DNA from: Streptomyces pristinaespiralis
Lineage (GTDB): Bacteria > Actinomycetota > Actinomycetes > Streptomycetales > Streptomycetaceae
NCBI RefSeq assembly: GCF_001278075.1
Contig: NZ_CP011340.1
Location: 6,259,501 to 6,323,500 of the forward strand
Direction of reading: 5' to 3'
DNA: 64,000 bases
Made by a program: the position numbers and the translations under genes. Below the pieces are notes generated by a model, which was given only the letters and a program-made list of their open reading frames with translations, was not told where the DNA came from and searched no databases. This document shows positions 18,385 to 64,000 of this stretch, piece after piece (position 1 is the stretch's first letter; each line of letters starts with the position of its first letter).

Positions 18385-20334
18385 CTAGAGCCCCTTGGTC
18401 TTGATCGTGATCGTGCTGCCCTCGGGCGCCTGGCCGCCGCCCTCTACGGACTGGCTCTCGACCTCGTCGCCCAGGTACGGGAAGTTCTTCTCGACCTTCA
18501 CCACGAAGCCCGCCTCCTCCAGCTCGGCGCGGGCGTCGTCCACCTTGTCGCCGACCACGTCCGGCACCTCCGCCATCCGCGGGCCCTTGGAGACCGTCAG
18601 CGTGACCGTGTCGCCGCCGGCCAGGCTGGTTCCTGCTGCGGCCGACTGGCGGGCGACGGAACCGGCCTCCTGCTCGGAGTGGATCCGCTCCTGGGCGACC
18701 TTCACCTTCAGACCGGCCTCCTCGAGCTCGGCCGTGGCGTCCTCGACGGAGTCACCCGTCACATCGGGCATGTCGATCGGCGCGCCCTTGCTGACGACGA
18801 TCGACACGGCGGTGTCGGGGCTCCGGCCGCTCTCGGCGGCCGGGTCGGTGCGGATCACCGAACCCTGTGCGACGCTCTCGTCGAACTCCCTGGTCACCAC
18901 ACCCGGCGCCAGCCCCACCTCGCGGAGCTCGCGCTTCGCCTCCGCCAGCGGCCGGCCCGACACATCGGGAACCTTCACGATCTCCGGACCGCGGGAGACC
19001 GTGATCGTCACGGAGTCGTTGCCCCGTATCCGCTCGTTCGTGCCCGGGTCGCTGCCGATGACGGTGCCGCGGGCCACCGTCTCGCTGAAGTCGTGCCTGA
19101 CGGCCTTCACGTCCAGGCCAGCCTTGTCGAGCGCCTCCCGGGCCTGCTGCTCGGTCTTGCCGATCAGCGGCGGCACACGGGTGAACTGGCCCGAGTTGAT
19201 GTACCAGACACCCGCACCCACACCGATCACGGCGATCACCGCGAGCAGCAGGGCGAACAGACCGCGTCGGGACAACGGCACGCGCCGGCCGGCCGGACGC
19301 ACCGGCTCGGGCTCCGGCCGCTCCGGAGGCGGCAGGATCAGCCGGGCCGTGTGGTGCACCCCGGACTCCGCGTCGGCCGGCTTCCGCACGATGACATCCG
19401 TACGGTCCTCGGCGGACGCGTCCCCGTCCGTGCCGCCCTCCGCCTGTTCCCCGGTGCGGGCCCGCGGCGGGACCGCGTCCAGCTGCTCGTCGCCGAGCGC
19501 CGCCCGCGCCTCACGTGCCTGGGCCAGCAGCGCCACCGCGTCGTGCGGGCGGACCTCGGGGTTGCGGGCCGTCGCGCTCGCCACCAGCTCGTCCAGCTCG
19601 ACGGCGAGCCCCGGGAAGAGCGCGGACGGCGCCGGGACGTCCGCGTTCAGGTGCTGGAACAGCACCTGGGCCGGAGTGTCGCCCCCGTGCGGCTTGGCGC
19701 CCGTCAGCATCTCGTAGAGCACGACCCCGCACGCGTACACGTCGGCACGGGTGTCCGCCGTGCCGTACTCGATCTGCTCCGGCGCGAGGTAGGAGACCGT
19801 GCCGAGGACCGTGCCCGAGGTGTTCGTCACGGAACCGACCGCGCGCACCAGGCCGAAGTCGGCGACCTTGACCCGGCCGTCGTCCCCTATCAGCACGTTC
19901 TCCGGCTTCATGTCCCGGTGCACGAACCCGGCCCGGTGCGCGGCGCCGAGCGCGGCCAGCACGGGCTCCAGGATGTCGAGCGCGGCCCGCGGCTGTAGCG
20001 CGCCGCGCTCACGCAGGACGTCACGGAGGGTGCAGCCCTCCACGTACTCCATCGCCAGATACACGTACGCGCCCTGCGCGCCCTGGTCGAAGACCCCGAC
20101 CACGTTCGGGTGCGCCAGCCGGGCGACGGACTTCGCCTCACGGATGAACCGCTCCACGAACGTGACGTCCGTGGCGAGATCCGGGTGCATCACCTTGAGG
20201 GCGAGCACCCGGTCGAGCCGGGTGTCGACGGCCCGGTAGACCGTGGCCATGCCGCCGACGGCGATGCGCGCATCGACGCGGTAGCGGCCGTCGAGCACCT
20301 GCCCGACGAGGGGGTCCTGGAGGGTCGTATCCAC
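18385..20334 (-). CDS. Ser/Thr protein kinase with PASTA domains (PknB type)
   Basis: A 649-residue membrane kinase that senses peptidoglycan fragments. The kinase domain spans 18-280: Gly-rich loop AVGGMATVYRAV (25-36), Lys47 in LALKVM, HRDMKPEN with catalytic D141, DFG at 159-161, and a Thr-rich activation loop (SVTNTSGTVLGTVSY). A disordered juxtamembrane region precedes one transmembrane helix near 355-378 (LFALLLAVIAVIGVGAGVWYI). Four extracellular PASTA repeats follow (about 383-649), each with a (I/V)(P/A)xVxG opening such as VPDVSGRPLAEAKREL. It probably regulates division and wall enzymes encoded elsewhere in the window. Upstream lies the structured repeat at 20448. Confidence 0.94.
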   Translation of the reverse strand: MDTTLQDPLVGQVLDGRYRVDARIAVGGMATVYRAVDTRLDRVLALKVMHPDLATDVTFVERFIREAKSVARLAHPNVVGVFDQGAQGAYVYLAMEYVEGCTLRDVLRERGALQPRAALDILEPVLAALGAAHRAGFVHRDMKPENVLIGDDGRVKVADFGLVRAVGSVTNTSGTVLGTVSYLAPEQIEYGTADTRADVYACGVVLYEMLTGAKPHGGDTPAQVLFQHLNADVPAPSALFPGLAVELDELVASATARNPEVRPHDAVALLAQAREARAALGDEQLDAVPPRARTGEQAEGGTDGDASAEDRTDVIVRKPADAESGVHHTARLILPPPERPEPEPVRPAGRRVPLSRRGLFALLLAVIAVIGVGAGVWYINSGQFTRVPPLIGKTEQQAREALDKAGLDVKAVRHDFSETVARGTVIGSDPGTNERIRGNDSVTITVSRGPEIVKVPDVSGRPLAEAKRELREVGLAPGVVTREFDESVAQGSVIRTDPAAESGRSPDTAVSIVVSKGAPIDMPDVTGDSVEDATAELEEAGLKVKVAQERIHSEQEAGSVARQSAAAGTSLAGGDTVTLTVSKGPRMAEVPDVVGDKVDDARAELEEAGFVVKVEKNFPYLGDEVESQSVEGGGQAPEGSTITIKTKGL

Positions 20335-20447: not shown

Positions 20448-20696
20448 TTTTCCCCCGCCCGCCCCTTCCCGCTGCATCGTGTGCGGCTCCGCCGTGTGGC
20501 GGGCAGGCCTCGGGCCCGTGCCGCCCTGCGGGCGGCGTACCGCGCTTCGCGCGGTGCCCTCGAACGCCGGGCGGGCCGGAGTCGCCCGGCAACTCCGGCC
20601 TCGCCGGCGTTCCAGGCGCGGAGGGCCGGGGTGGAGCCCCCAGGCCGCCAGGCGGTCCGGGAAGGGGCGGGGTGGGGAACAGGCTCCGCGCAGCGG
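20448..20696. repeat. Structured dispersed intergenic element, copy 1
   Basis: This fills most of the 379-bp gap between the kinase start and the thiG stop. Outer arms CCCGCCCCTTCCCG (20458-20471) and its complement (20658-20671) enclose several hairpins: one near 20480-20495, GCCGCCC/GGGCGGC, ACCGCGC/GCGCGGT with loop TTC, a long stem 20559-20570 with 20604-20615 that itself carries GGCCGGAG/CTCCGGCC, and GGGG/CCCC. The layout and flanks match copy 2 at 60931-61124 in the same orientation. No protein-coding signal was seen. Confidence 0.85.
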
Positions 20697-20713: not shown

Positions 20714-21514
<801 letters not shown>

Positions 21515-21790
21515 TCAGCCTCCCTGCACTGCGGTGAGGATCTCGACACGGTCGCCGTCGCCGAGCCGGGTGGCGGCCCATTCGCCGCGCGGGACGACCG
21601 CCTCGTTGACGGCGGCGGCGACACCGGACGGCGCGGCGGAAAGCGTGGTGACGACCACGTCCAGCGTGGTGCCGGCCGCGACGTCACGGGCCTCGCCGTT
21701 GACGAGGACGCGGACCGGACCGTCGGCGACGGTCGAGGCGGCGGCAGCGGCGACTGCGGCGTCGGCGCTGTCGTTGACGGAGGCGTTCAT
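21515..21790 (-). CDS. thiS: Sulfur carrier protein ThiS
   Basis: Ubiquitin-like sulfur carrier of 91 residues, ending in the required Gly-Gly. The conserved core starts near residue 26 (VRVLVNGEARDVAAGTTL) and includes VAAAVNEAVVPRGEW and RLGDGDRVEILTAVQGG. The about 25-residue Ala-rich N-terminal extension is unusual, since ThiS proteins are normally about 66 residues. The ATG at 21790 overlaps the thiO stop as ATGA, supporting this start and translational coupling. It carries sulfur as a C-terminal thiocarboxylate to ThiG. Confidence 0.93.
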   Translation of the reverse strand: MNASVNDSADAAVAAAAASTVADGPVRVLVNGEARDVAAGTTLDVVVTTLSAAPSGVAAAVNEAVVPRGEWAATRLGDGDRVEILTAVQGG

Positions 21791-22950
21791 GCGGGCTGCT
21801 CCTGAAGGACGGACGAGAAGCGGCGTGGTGAGAAGGGCCGTGCCACGTCGGGCAGTTCACCGGTCGTCAGGGCGTCGGCCAGCACATCGCCGGTGACGGG
21901 CGTCAGCAGCACGCCGTTGCGGTAGTGGCCGGTCGCCAGCAGCAGACCCGGCAGCTCGGTGAAGCCCAGCAGCGGTGCGTTGTCGGGGGAGCCGGGGCGC
22001 AGTCCCGCCCGGGTCTCCACAAGGGGCAGTTCGGTGATCCCTGGCACCAACTCGTGCGCGTCGCGCAGCAGCTCGTAGACCCCGCCCGCCGTGACCGTCG
22101 TGTCCCAGCCGAGCTCCTCGCTGGTCGCGCCCACGACCAGCTCGCCGTCCTCGCGGGGCACGAGGTAGACCTCACTGCCACGGACCACGGCGCGCACCGT
22201 GCGGGAGAGGAACGGCGCGTAGGGGCGCGGCACGGTCAGTCGCAGGACCTGACCCTTCACCGGGCGCACGGGCGGGAGCACGTCCTGCGGTACGCCCTCC
22301 AGCCGTCCGCTCATGCTGCCGCCGGCCAGGACGACCTGCCCCGCGGACAGTTCGGCGCCGTCGGCGAGCACGGCCCCGGTCGCCCGGTCGCCCGTGACGA
22401 GCAGTCGCTCCGCCCAGCCGCGGCGGAATTCGACCCCGGCCCGCTCGCAGGCGGCGATCAGGGCCGCGGCCAGCCGGCGCGGGTCGACCTGATGGTCGCC
22501 GTCGACCCGCAGCCCGCCGCGGACGCCGGGGGCGAGCATCGGCTCGAGGCGACGGCACTCGCGGCCCGTGAGCCACTCGGACGTGAGCCCCGACCGGTGC
22601 TGGAGGGCGTGCAGTTCACGCAGATGCGCCCGATCGTCGGCGTCGAGGGCGACGGCGAGTGTGCCGCAGGAGCGGTAGCCCACCCGCCGGCCGGACGTCT
22701 CCTCCAGCTCGGCGACGAAGGCCGGATAGCGGTGCGCGGATTCGAGGTTGAGGCCGAGCAGCGTCTGCTCGCCGTAGTGCAGTTCGGTGACGGCGGCCAG
22801 CATCCCGGCGGCGACCTGCGCCGCCCCGCCGCCCGGTTCAGGGTCGGCGACGGCGACCCGCAGCCCCCGTTGCGCGGTGCGCCAGGCCGTGACCAGGCCG
22901 ATGATCCCGCCCCCGATGACGAGGACGTCTGGGCTCGGTGTACGAGACAT
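21787..22950 (-). CDS. thiO: Glycine oxidase ThiO
   Basis: FAD enzyme of 387 residues that oxidises glycine to the imine used in thiazole formation. The N-terminal dinucleotide motif VLVIGGGIIGLVTAW is at about 9-23, followed by the DAO-family segments GGGAAQVAAGMLAA, GGLRVDGDHQVDPRRLAAAL, PVKGQVLRL and a C-terminal TGHYRNGVLLTPVTG. The ATG at 22950 is 12-20 nt downstream of a GGGAGGGG sequence that lies at the 3' end of the TPP riboswitch, so translation initiation is the likely control point. First gene of thiO-thiS-thiG. Confidence 0.93.
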   Translation of the reverse strand: MSRTPSPDVLVIGGGIIGLVTAWRTAQRGLRVAVADPEPGGGAAQVAAGMLAAVTELHYGEQTLLGLNLESAHRYPAFVAELEETSGRRVGYRSCGTLAVALDADDRAHLRELHALQHRSGLTSEWLTGRECRRLEPMLAPGVRGGLRVDGDHQVDPRRLAAALIAACERAGVEFRRGWAERLLVTGDRATGAVLADGAELSAGQVVLAGGSMSGRLEGVPQDVLPPVRPVKGQVLRLTVPRPYAPFLSRTVRAVVRGSEVYLVPREDGELVVGATSEELGWDTTVTAGGVYELLRDAHELVPGITELPLVETRAGLRPGSPDNAPLLGFTELPGLLLATGHYRNGVLLTPVTGDVLADALTTGELPDVARPFSPRRFSSVLQEQPA

Positions 22951-22961
22951 GGGCGTCCAGC

Positions 22962-23054
22962 CCCTCCCTTCGCCGGCATGACCCGGATCAGGTTCGTACG
23001 GTCGGAGGCCGGCCAGCCTCCCTCTCAGCCCGGTGCGCCCGGGCTCCCGCGAGT
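22962..23054 (-). promoter_or_regulatory. TPP riboswitch (THI element)
   Basis: Read on the minus strand it contains the hallmark THI box segments in order: GGGAGCCC opening, CUGAGAGGGAGG, a variable hairpin, GACCGUACGAACCUGAUCCGGGUCAUGCCGG split by the pyrophosphate-sensing loop, and GCGAAGGGAGGGG at the 3' end. It ends 12 bp before the thiO start codon. The final segment contains the likely ribosome-binding site, so thiamine pyrophosphate binding should mask it. Confidence 0.96.
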
Positions 23055-23111
23055 GCCTTACGGTGGCCACCCTAACCGCACGCCCCGACGCGTTGTAAGG
23101 GAGCCGCAGCA

Positions 23112-59705: not shown

Positions 59706-60806
59706 ATGCCGCTGACTCCCGAGGACGTGCGGAACAAGCAGTTCACGACCGTCCGCCTCCGAGAAGGCTATGACGAGGACGAGGTCGATGCCTTCCTCGA
59801 CGAGGTCGAGTCCGAGCTGACCCGTCTGCTCCGCGAGAACGAGGACCTGCGCGCGAAGCTGGCCGCGGCGACGCGTGCCGCCGCGCAGAACCAGCAGCAG
59901 CAACAACAGGGCATGCGCAAACCGCCGGAGCCCCAGGACGGCCGCGGCCCGGGCGGTCCCGGTGCCCCCGTGCCCGCCGCCATATCAGGACCGCCGGTCC
60001 AGCAGCAGCCCCCGCAGATGGGTCCGCCCCAGCTGCCGGGTGGAGCACCGCAGTTGCCGGCCGGTCCCAGCCACGGCGGCCCCCAGGGTCCTGGCGGCCC
60101 GATGGGCCCCGGCCCGATGCAGGGCGGACCCATGGGTGGCCCGATGGGCGGTCCCATGGGCGGACACGGCGGCCCGCAGGGCCCCGGTCCGATGGGTCAG
60201 GGCCCCGGTGGAGACAGCGCCGCGCGCGTGCTCTCGCTGGCCCAGCAGACCGCTGACCAGGCGATCGCGGAGGCCCGTTCCGAGGCCAACAAGATCGTCG
60301 GCGAGGCGCGTTCGCGCGCCGAGGGCCTGGAGCGGGACGCCCGCGCCAAGGCCGACGCCCTCGAGCGGGACGCCCAGGAGAAGCACCGCGTCGCCATGGG
60401 CTCCCTCGAGTCCGCGCGCGCCACGCTGGAGCGCAAGGTCGAGGACCTGCGCGGCTTCGAGCGCGAGTACCGGACCAGGCTGAAGTCCTACCTGGAGAGC
60501 CAGCTGCGTCAGCTGGAGACCCAGGCGGACGACTCCCTGGCCCCGCCGCGCCAGCCCGCGGCCGCGTCGCTGCCGCCGTCCCCGGCGCCTTCCATGGCAC
60601 CGGCCGGCGCGAGCGCCCCGTCCTACGGCAACCAGACGATGGGCGGCCACGGGCCGTCGCCGTCCGGCCCGTCGTACGGCGGCCAGCAGCAGATGTCGCC
60701 GGCGATGACCCAGCCGATGGCACCGGTGCGGCCGCAGGCGCCGCAGCCGATGCAGCAGGCGCCGTCGCCGATGCGCGGTTTCCTGATCGACGAGGACGAC
60801 AACTGA
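59706..60806 (+). CDS. divIVA: Polar growth protein DivIVA
   Basis: Coiled-coil tip-growth organiser of 366 residues, essential in Streptomyces. The N-terminal membrane-binding DivIVA domain ([43 protein letters not shown]) and first coiled coil cover about 1-60. A long linker rich in Pro, Gly, Gln and Met (about 61-170, with [14 protein letters not shown] repeats) follows. The second coiled coil (about 172-280, heptad-rich [26 protein letters not shown]) precedes a disordered Pro/Gln tail ending [11 protein letters not shown] 59706. It ends at a strong terminator. Confidence 0.96.
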
Positions 60807-60849
60807 CGGGGTTGCGCGCGCAGCGCGCTTAGCCGTCGGCAGACTGCGG

Positions 60850-60893
60850 GGCCGGGCCCGGGACGTGACACACGTCCCGGGCCCGGCCTTTTT
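60850..60893 (+). terminator. Rho-independent terminator of divIVA
   Basis: Perfect 18-bp stem (60850-60867 with 60871-60888), 3-nt loop ACA, followed directly by TTTTT (60889-60893). Textbook intrinsic terminator, 43 bp after the divIVA stop. Confidence 0.95.
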
Positions 60894-60930
60894 GCGCGGT
60901 GGGGGGTGCGTGGCGCCTGCGGCGGGCTTG

Positions 60931-61124
60931 TTCCCCTACCCGCCCCTTCCCGTAACCGGGCTCCGCCCGGACCCGTACCGCGCTTCGCGCGGTGCCCTCA
61001 ATCGCCGGGCGGGCTGGATTTCGCTCCGCGAAATCAGCCCCGCCGGCGATTGAGGCGCGGGGGTCCGGGGGCGGAGCCCCCGGCTACGGGAAGGGGCGGG
61101 GTGGGGAAGAGCTCCGCGCAGCGG
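60931..61124. repeat. Structured dispersed intergenic element, copy 2
   Basis: Outer arms CCCGCCCCTTCCCG (60939-60952) and its complement (61087-61100), extended by TTCCCC/GGGGAA. They enclose CCGGGC-TCC-GCCCGG, ACCGCGC-TTC-GCGCGGT, a 12-bp stem (60997-61008 with 61043-61054) topped by ATTTCGC-TCC-GCGAAAT, and CGGGGGC-GGA-GCCCCCG. The order of hairpins is as in copy 1 at 20448-20696. Both copies end with CTCCGCGCAGCGG. Confidence 0.88.
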
Positions 61125-61170
61125 CCTCCCCGGGCCGCCCCCACCCCGCACCCGCCCCCCGGAAACGCCC

Positions 61171-61202
61171 GCGGGCCCGGTCACAAGCGTGACCGGGCCC
61201 GC
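61171..61202. terminator. Terminator of ileS
   Basis: Perfect 14-bp stem (61171-61184 with 61189-61202) and a 4-nt loop AAGC, beginning 15 bp downstream of the ileS stop on the minus strand. Confidence 0.85.
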
Positions 61203-61216
61203 AGGGGCAGGGCGTG

Positions 61217-64000
<2,784 letters not shown>

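What the first reader, a model, noticed from the sequence alone, without database searches (positions are those of the whole stretch)
60931..61124. Multi-hairpin intergenic element with compensatory changes between two copies
Two intergenic segments (20448-20696 and 60931-61124) share outer arms, the order of internal hairpins and the terminal CTCCGCGCAGCGG, though much of the inner sequence differs. In the central stem, copy 1 reads CTCGAACGCCGG with CCGGCGTTCCAG, and copy 2 reads CTCAATCGCCGG with CCGGCGATTGAG. Two pairs change on both sides (G-C to A-T and A-T to T-A), while one pair is lost in copy 1. The hairpin inside that stem also keeps pairing with different sequence. This suggests selection on a folded RNA or DNA cruciform rather than simple duplication. 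Function is unknown: it could be a 3' end or processing element, a protein-binding cruciform, or a non-autonomous mobile repeat.
Basis: partly seen in the sequence, partly recalled or inferred. Interest (0 to 1): 0.72.

Follow-up and report, generated by a model that had tools for sequence, protein, structure and literature searches.

The report
Streptomyces mosaic hairpin repeats between genes
The two folded segments belong to a large family of repeated DNA hairpins that many Streptomyces genomes carry next to the ends of genes, and one small hairpin in them has kept its pairing through many sequence changes; what the family does is not yet known.

Summary
The arm pattern occurs in 57 of 150 same-genus genomes (own included), up to 244 matches in one, and in 1 of 287 other-genus genomes of a phylum sample. 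The 80 listed of 119 named hits are Streptomyces, Embleya or Streptantibioticus.

Two paired features are supported. A small "head" hairpin, NNCC-TCAANCGCC-GGNN, keeps both variable stem pairs (280 and 277 of 293 heads; shuffle maxima 201 and 200; neighbouring columns show nothing). The loop base N of two facing heads matches in 60 of 76 (shuffled mean 31). The long arms do not covary among 18 recent copies of one genome.

Clusters lie in convergent (120), tandem (109) or divergent (14) spacers; background 60/222/144. One-sided heads show no strand preference (41/38). No Rfam family reaches its cut-off; no Y1 transposase was found in this genome.

Best reading: a mosaic REP/BIME-like repeat family of Streptomycetaceae, probably a strand-neutral 3'-end hairpin barrier (function inferred), partly maintained by DNA template switching. 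It fails two REP defining tests, so it is not filed as a REP.

The parts
60914..60924 (.). Copy 2, left terminal small hairpin CGCC-TGC-GGCG, outside the coordinates given
   Evidence: Read; this motif or CGCTGCGCGG flanks many own-genome copies printed (by eye)
60931..60952 (.). Copy 2, left outer arm
   Evidence: pairs with 61087-61108 in the minimum-energy fold
60956..60970 (.). Copy 2, hairpin 1 (CCGGGCTCCGCCCGG)
   Evidence: Read; module also in own copies aligned
60977..60993 (.). Copy 2, hairpin 2 (ACCGCGCTTCGCGCGGT)
60994..61010 (+). Copy 2, left head hairpin GCCC-TCAATCGCC-GGGC (class GC..GC)
   Evidence: covariation of this hairpin across 293 heads
61017..61035 (.). Copy 2, apical hairpin GATTTCGC-TCC-GCGAAATC; other copies have other sequences here
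61041..61057 (-). Copy 2, right head hairpin (class CG..CG on the minus strand), inverted partner of the left head; loops complementary
61065..61083 (.). Copy 2, right hairpin 1 (CCGGGGGCGGAGCCCCCGG)
61087..61108 (.). Copy 2, right outer arm
61114..61124 (.). Copy 2, right terminal small hairpin CCGC-GCA-GCGG
   Evidence: folds
60850..60893 (+). Terminator-like hairpin with T run of the divIVA gene, between the gene and the element
   Evidence: Read; an equivalent hairpin is visible by eye in the 29 orthologous spacers printed
61171..61202 (-). GC-rich hairpin at the 3' end of ileS, between gene and element
   Evidence: Read; equivalents visible by eye in most spacers printed (not in L102)
20450..20471 (.). 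Copy 1, left outer arm
20556..20572 (+). Copy 1, left head hairpin GCCC-TCGAACGCC-GGGC
   Evidence: double change at loop position 3 listed (L013)
20602..20618 (-).
20658..20679 (.). Copy 1, right outer arm
59706..60806 (+). divIVA (PF05103), gene to the left of copy 2, 3' end facing it
61217..64000 (-). ileS-type tRNA synthetase (PF00133, PF08264, PF19302), open at the window edge; 3' end facing copy 2
20714..21508 (-). thiG (PF05690), 3' end facing copy 1
18385..20334 (-). PASTA protein kinase gene (PF00069, PF03793), 5' end facing copy 1

Best explanation
Both segments are members of a family of mosaic palindromic repeats found in Streptomyces and, in single listed cases, other Streptomycetaceae. 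A full element is an inverted pair of units. A unit consists of a small terminal hairpin, a G/C-tract arm, one or two GC hairpins and a head hairpin NNCC-TCAANCGCC-GGNN followed by GGGCTG. The two heads face each other and their 9-base loops are complementary, so the core can form either two small hairpins or one long stem. Shown: the family, its spread, its seat mostly at gene 3' ends, the paired changes in the head stem and at the facing loop base, no strand preference of one-sided heads in tandem spacers, and fast turnover of modules at fixed sites. Inferred: the elements work as strand-neutral hairpin barriers at gene ends, stopping RNA polymerase or protecting transcript 3' ends from either side, which would explain why they gather between convergent genes and avoid divergent promoters. 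Also inferred: they are renewed and copied by replication template switching and by recombination between inverted arms and between copies. The family identity is close to certain; the barrier function is my best guess at about 0.4.
For: Copies: 57 of 150 same-genus genomes, own included; own 23+27 matches; G096 115+129; G085 86+94; reversed-pattern control 0-2 per strand; head motif up to 181+201 in G002, control 9+6. Head covariation: 280 and 277 of 293 Watson-Crick, shuffle maxima 201 and 200; the next column pairs show no association, with or without G-U; after collapsing at 70% identity 110 and 112 of 120 against maxima 78 and 87. Facing loop base. At the same divIVA-ileS site the head stem switches between CT..AG, CG..CG and GC..GC within one supported 14-genome clade; over 30 genomes 21 have a divIVA-side head, 18 of them fully paired. 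Place: 120 convergent / 109 tandem / 14 divergent clusters against 60/222/144; tandem clusters nearer the upstream stop in 83 of 110; 19 of 26 G051 elements have an edge within 25 bases of a facing stop codon. Strand: 41 sense, 38 antisense. Turnover with site conservation: G460 shows arm or head matches (loose patterns) at 10 of 13 mapped sites, usually with different content. Literature: U-poor structured 3' ends likened to I-shaped terminators, and bidirectional ends, in S. clavuligerus (PMC8269248, passages seen); overlapping convergent 3' UTRs in three Streptomyces species (PMC3765725, passages seen).
Against: No transcript data were available. At divIVA-ileS both genes have hairpins of their own outside the element, the divIVA one with a T run, so the element is not needed as the primary terminator there. 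The consensus scan found no T-tract terminator in 60780-61260 (it did not report the divIVA hairpin either, so it is weak). A near-invariant 9-base loop is more than a plain terminator needs. Outer arms do not covary among recent copies. The preference for convergent spacers could be mere tolerance of insertions away from promoters. Many same-genus genomes have no arm match (93 of 150) and head counts at or below control, so the family is dispensable for the genus.
Confidence: 0.55

Rival explanations
1. The head is a single-stranded DNA hairpin recognised by an unknown enzyme, as REP hairpins are by RAYT, and the elements are non-autonomous mobile repeats; their place at 3' ends is only where insertions are tolerated.
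For: Conserved loop with covarying stem, equal on both strands relative to transcription. A one-sided foot GGGCTG is conserved while the other side varies. Inverted doublets with two alternative folds resemble the two REPIN folds of PMC3116915 (passages seen). G051 holds many similar copies in both orientations with the same ends. Patchy copy number. G-type heads in G091 lie 14 clusters to 1 on one strand left of the estimated origin (counted by hand).
Against: No Y1_Tnp in the own genome or in G096, the genome with most arm matches; present in 3 of the 10 arm-bearing genomes tested (G085, G055 and G149, all high-copy) and 5 of the 10 without arm matches. No clean empty site against the relative G460. 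No GT[AG]G foot. The strand polarity is not seen in G096, and was 8 to 4 (p 0.39) over four genomes when degenerate partner heads were allowed.
Confidence: 0.25
2. The pairing is kept by mutation, not by function: replication template switching between the inverted arms keeps making palindromes more perfect and inverts their centres.
For: PMC8794818 (abstract and start of introduction seen); PMC8604942 (start of abstract in a listing: arm homogenisation and spacer inversion). No excess of G-U over A-C. Own and G460 cores at divIVA-ileS carry the CG-type head on opposite sides (read). L047 has a perfectly matched but altered core (read).
Against: The head class is not shared between the two arms outside G051 (15 of 48 against 16.8 expected), so arm-to-arm copying of the whole head is rare. 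Pairing is confined to the 4-bp stem; the neighbouring columns are free. Outer arms of recent copies carry many uncorrected mismatches.
Confidence: 0.25
3. A binding site for a DNA-level protein such as gyrase or a nucleoid protein, relieving supercoils where convergent transcripts meet, as proposed for BIMEs.
For: Convergent bias, no strand preference, and the exact arm matches keep off the chromosome ends. REP/BIME sequences bind IHF and gyrase (PMC6006769, passages seen; IHF also in PMC2817692, passages seen).
Against: No binding data; arms and hairpins differ between lineages, which a fixed DNA-binding site would not allow except at the head.
Confidence: 0.1

Closest known systems
BIMEs / REPs of enterobacteria and Pseudomonas (PMC2817692, PMC1525189, PMC6006769, passages seen)
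   Same: Many intergenic imperfect palindromes per genome; inverted doublets and mosaics of units; frequent between convergent genes; species-specific versions
   Different: No GT[AG]G foot; different sequence; larger nested elements with several hairpin modules; 9-base conserved loop; no Y1 transposase in the own genome
REPINs (PMC3116915, passages seen)
   Same: Two inverted units that can fold as one long hairpin or as two small ones
   Different: No RAYT in the own genome or in G096; mosaics with extra modules; at the 13 sites mapped in G460 the content turns over without a clean empty site
I-shaped or bidirectional terminators of GC-rich bacteria (PMC8269248, passages seen)
   Same: GC-rich stem-loops without U tract at 3' ends, possible on both strands
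   Different: Those are defined by transcript ends; here there are repeated sequence families with a conserved loop, and no transcript evidence
cutoRNAs, overlapping 3' UTRs of convergent Streptomyces genes (PMC3765725, passages seen)
   Same: Same genomic setting
   Different: A transcript class, not a repeat

Membership tests
REP/BIME | Many intergenic imperfect palindromes in one genome | tested here: met
   293 of 318 heads in the set are non-coding by the gene finder
REP/BIME | GT[AG]G foot at the 5' base of the hairpin | tested here: not met
   The conserved flank is GGGCTG on one side (CAGCC 5' of the hairpin on the other strand); the other side varies
REP/BIME | Associated RAYT (Y1_Tnp) in the genome | tested here: not met
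   PF01797: none in the own genome or G096; 8 of 20 genomes have one, 3 of 10 with arm matches and 5 of 10 without
REP/BIME | Inverted doublets / mosaic clusters | tested here: met
   76 facing head pairs; tandem and nested modules
REP/BIME | Preference for gene 3' ends and convergent spacers | tested here: met
Structured RNA family | Match to a described Rfam family | tested here: not met
   No gathering match at the elements; best permissive matches 18 of 40 bits and 23.8 of 77.5 bits
Structured RNA family | RNA-sense bias (G-U tolerated more than A-C, or fixed strand to transcription) | tested here: inconclusive
   6/6, 84/67 with control 44/33, strand 41/38
MITE / transposon-mobilised repeat | Target-site duplication and empty site in a relative | tested here: inconclusive
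   13 of 23 own sites mapped in G460 by flanks: 10 with arm or head matches by loose pattern, 2 degenerate or changed by eye, 1 nearly empty but with a remnant; duplications were not scored
Intrinsic terminator | Transcript 3' ends at the hairpin | not testable with these tools
   No transcript data held

The most novel reading that the evidence does not exclude
A Streptomycetaceae repeat system whose unit is a bistable pair of hairpins with mutually complementary 9-base loops. It is recognised as folded single-stranded DNA by an unidentified, non-RAYT enzyme, and spreads with a replication-strand preference while serving as a two-way 3'-end barrier between convergent genes.
Probability: 0.15. 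Interest if true: 0.8.

Novelty: new variant of a known kind. Interest (0 to 1): 0.58.

Why it matters
If right, many Streptomyces intergenic spacers, especially between convergent genes, are built from one repeat family. I saw no paper naming it in the listings, which cover one open-access library only. It would give the genus a REP/BIME counterpart without the known transposase in at least two genomes that carry it, a concrete candidate for two-way 3'-end formation in genomes with many U-poor transcript ends, and a natural test set for separating selection on hairpins from template-switch mutation.

Tried and rejected
Rejected: a simple two-copy duplication. A known Rfam RNA. A RAYT-driven REPIN in the own genome. 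Selection on the whole long stem as shown by covariation: tested on 18 G051 copies and not above shuffles. Whole-structure folding of 9 own copies gave a covariation term of +1.02 kcal/mol, with 6 of 65 pairs changed on both sides in some sequence. A strand-sensitive RNA reading: 41 to 38. A G-U excess: inconclusive. A 10-base head piece as a copy counter: below its own control.

Replication polarity: strong in the G-type heads of G091 (18 clusters with the fork, 4 against, counted by hand, origin only estimated), 12 to 4 in the right arm of G051 (p 0.077), and not held up when degenerate partner heads were allowed (8 to 4, p 0.39). I leave it as a lead. DnaA-box clusters (5 and 6 in 1 kb) were found in the stretches fetched for G051 and G093 but not in those for the own genome and G091, so for these two, and for G096, the origin was placed from the ileS distance, whose size I first recalled from S. 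coelicolor.

The terminator scan was uninformative.

Limits: the gene finder is my own codon-usage script. One-sided means one exact head match; with a looser match 77 of 89 elements counted have a partner. The loci come from several differently chosen sets. The ileS set was left out of the context counts but not. Outside-genus loci L161-L170, the transposase loci L129-L130 and duplicate loci were left out. Searches used loci up to L300 only. In one search, 8 of the 26 full-length G051 elements were left out because of insertions, truncation or a shifted boundary. Shuffles do not model relatedness; collapsing at 90, 80 and 70% identity is the only guard.

Full report
WHAT IS THERE. They fold much better than 200 shuffles each. 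Copy 2 lies between divIVA and an ileS-type gene, two 3' ends facing each other; copy 1 lies between thiG (3' end) and a PASTA kinase gene (5' end). Copy 2 is flanked by small hairpins at 60914-60924 and 61114-61124.

A GENOME-WIDE, GENUS-LEVEL FAMILY. Copy 2 gives 143 BLAST matches in its own 8.53 Mb genome with only 40 of 154 candidate spots scored. The 14-base arm gives 100 matches against 35 for the reversed control, and all 46 exact ones lie between 0.97 and 7.32 Mb, none near the ends. A 20-base arm pattern occurs in 57 of 150 same-genus genomes, own included, with 1 to 244 matches and a control of 0-2 per strand; 93 of 150 have none. In a phylum sample of 296 it occurs in 2 of 9 same-genus genomes (one is the own) and in 1 of 287 others, there as one match with one mismatch. 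The head motif CCTCAANCGCCGG reaches 382 matches in one genome against 15 in the control, but many same-genus genomes are at or below control. In a class sample of 246, 152 genomes have some match, as expected for so short a motif; outside the genus no genome exceeds 7.

ANATOMY. Across loci the full element is an inverted pair of units: small terminal hairpin, arm, GC hairpin(s), head, short spacer, then the mirror image. Arms differ by lineage: TTCCCCTACCCGCCCCTTCCCG in the own genome, TGCCCCGGTCCCGCCCTTTCACCGTTTC in G051, TCGCCCCCGCCGCCCCTACCCGTCCCGTCC in several named species. Each type has a complementary partner arm. Other hairpin modules are inserted inside, and units can be repeated in tandem.

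WHAT COVARIES. In 293 non-coding heads the stem NNCC/GGNN has four main classes, GT..AC 166, CT..AG 49, CG..CG 35, GC..GC 20, together 270 of 293. The two variable pairs are Watson-Crick in 280 and 277; shuffles give means of 181 and 161 and maxima of 201 and 200. The next columns out show no association: 75 Watson-Crick with 81 expected, and 176 with 175.5 expected if G-U is allowed. Collapsing similar heads to 120 clusters leaves 110 and 112 paired. The variable loop base matches between facing heads in 60 of 76 elements, mean of shuffles 31.4; after collapsing at 70% identity 27 of 31, and 14 of 16 where the two heads are of different stem class. The stem class itself is not shared between facing heads outside G051: 15 of 48, 16.8 expected. 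So each head keeps its own stem while the two loops stay complementary. At the orthologous divIVA-ileS site of 30 genomes, 21 have a head on the divIVA side by a relaxed pattern; 18 have both variable pairs intact and 3 do not. The class changes within a well supported clade of 14 genomes: CT..AG 8, CG..CG 4, GC..GC 1, none 1.

WHAT DOES NOT. In 18 full-length copies of G051 the whole structure shows 3 pairs changed on both sides against a shuffled mean of 3.4, and a score of 0.028 against 0.024 (28 of 500 shuffles as high). One outer pair is unpaired in 10 of 15 sequences; the facing loop base is the exception, with 5 double changes and 2 unpaired of 18. The pairing itself is real: 95.8% of cells, against 38-52% when one side is slid. 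Nine own copies give a covariation term of +1.02 kcal/mol. Among loop positions other than N, on 59 collapsed pairs, position 3 shows 3 matched double changes, 3 single ones and 1 unmatched double; position 4 shows 6 single and no double.

RNA OR DNA. Mismatch types do not favour RNA: 6 G-U and 6 A-C in the head stem, 84 and 67 in local hairpins read in the sense of the facing gene, with 44 and 33 in ordinary 3' regions. The second test lacks power, since ordinary 3' regions show no clearer bias. In tandem spacers with one exact head orientation, 41 are sense and 38 antisense.

WHERE THEY SIT. Excluding the ileS set, 243 non-coding clusters lie in 120 convergent, 109 tandem and 14 divergent spacers; 27 further clusters fell in predicted genes. 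Spacers of at least 100 bp without heads in the same loci: 60, 222 and 144 (chi-square p 8e-28; divergent Fisher p 1.6e-18). In tandem spacers 83 of 110 are nearer the upstream stop. In G051, 19 of 26 elements have an edge within 25 bases of a facing stop codon. At divIVA-ileS both genes have hairpins of their own outside the element.

TURNOVER AT FIXED SITES. Against G460, whose flanking genes are about 89-97% identical, 23 own loci were tried and 13 could be mapped by their flanks (a fourteenth, L006, matched through the element itself and is not counted; 9 were not mapped). Ten show arm or head matches by loose patterns (up to 2 mismatches), usually with other modules or other order; L013 and L046 are the weakest of them. 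L023 and L029 show altered remnants by eye (L029 keeps arms around a different centre). L045 is almost empty but keeps an end remnant. For L002, unmapped by flanks, one 231-base match at 94% covers the element. This speaks for old sites with rapid internal change, not for recent clean insertions, though G051 shows many similar copies.

HOW IT PROBABLY WORKS. Strand-neutral hairpins at facing gene ends fit a two-way barrier for transcription or for 3' exonucleases; the conserved loop and the facing-loop match suggest an added recognition or switching role. Template switching would explain why paired changes, core inversions and module swaps are frequent. Only the distribution and pairing are shown; function is inferred.

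COMPARISON. It works like BIMEs/REPINs in place, mosaic build and two alternative folds, but fails two defining tests, the GT[AG]G foot and an associated RAYT in the own genome (PMC2817692, PMC6006769 and PMC3116915, passages seen). I therefore do not file it as a REP.

Counts for the phylum and class samples, the named scan, the transposase split, the G460 identities and the orthologous-site heads were made exact, and results and one search were added.

Noticed in passing
window 22948-23060, minus strand: TPP riboswitch (RF00059, 60.9 bits) upstream of the gene predicted at 21787-22950, in the same gene group as thiG.
   Followed up: no
G091, positions 1.84-4.98 Mb: G-type heads lie almost all on one strand (14 clusters to 1) left of the estimated origin; weaker in G051, not seen in G096. 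Possible replication polarity.
   Followed up: partly
own genome: All 46 exact arm matches lie between 0.97 and 7.32 Mb of 8.53 Mb; the chromosome ends are free of them.
   Followed up: no
L245, L274, L262, L264, L266; own L009, L011, L018-L020, L022, L023: A second short hairpin repeat (GGGGGTGCCCCCTCTGGGGGAG in G051; variants of CTCCCCCTACGGCCTGGCGGCCGTGGGAGGTGCCCCC in the own genome) sits inside the elements at several places, as nested insertions (by eye).
   Followed up: partly
L001 and L100, divIVA-ileS spacer: Own and G460 carry the CG-type head on opposite sides of the core, as if the core had been inverted or replaced between relatives.
   Followed up: partly
L109, divIVA-ileS spacer of G571: Only a terminal hairpin and an arm end remain (CGCCTGCGGCGGGCTTGGGGGAAAGC), looking like the scar of a lost element.
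   Followed up: no
L108 and L023: Long tandem arrays of about 40-60 base hairpin units in the same kind of spacer.
   Followed up: no
L088: Another repeat-like sequence with a GGGGCGCGGGGAACTGCGCG-like core occurs twice near an arm; I recall it as common in Streptomyces, not checked.
   Followed up: no
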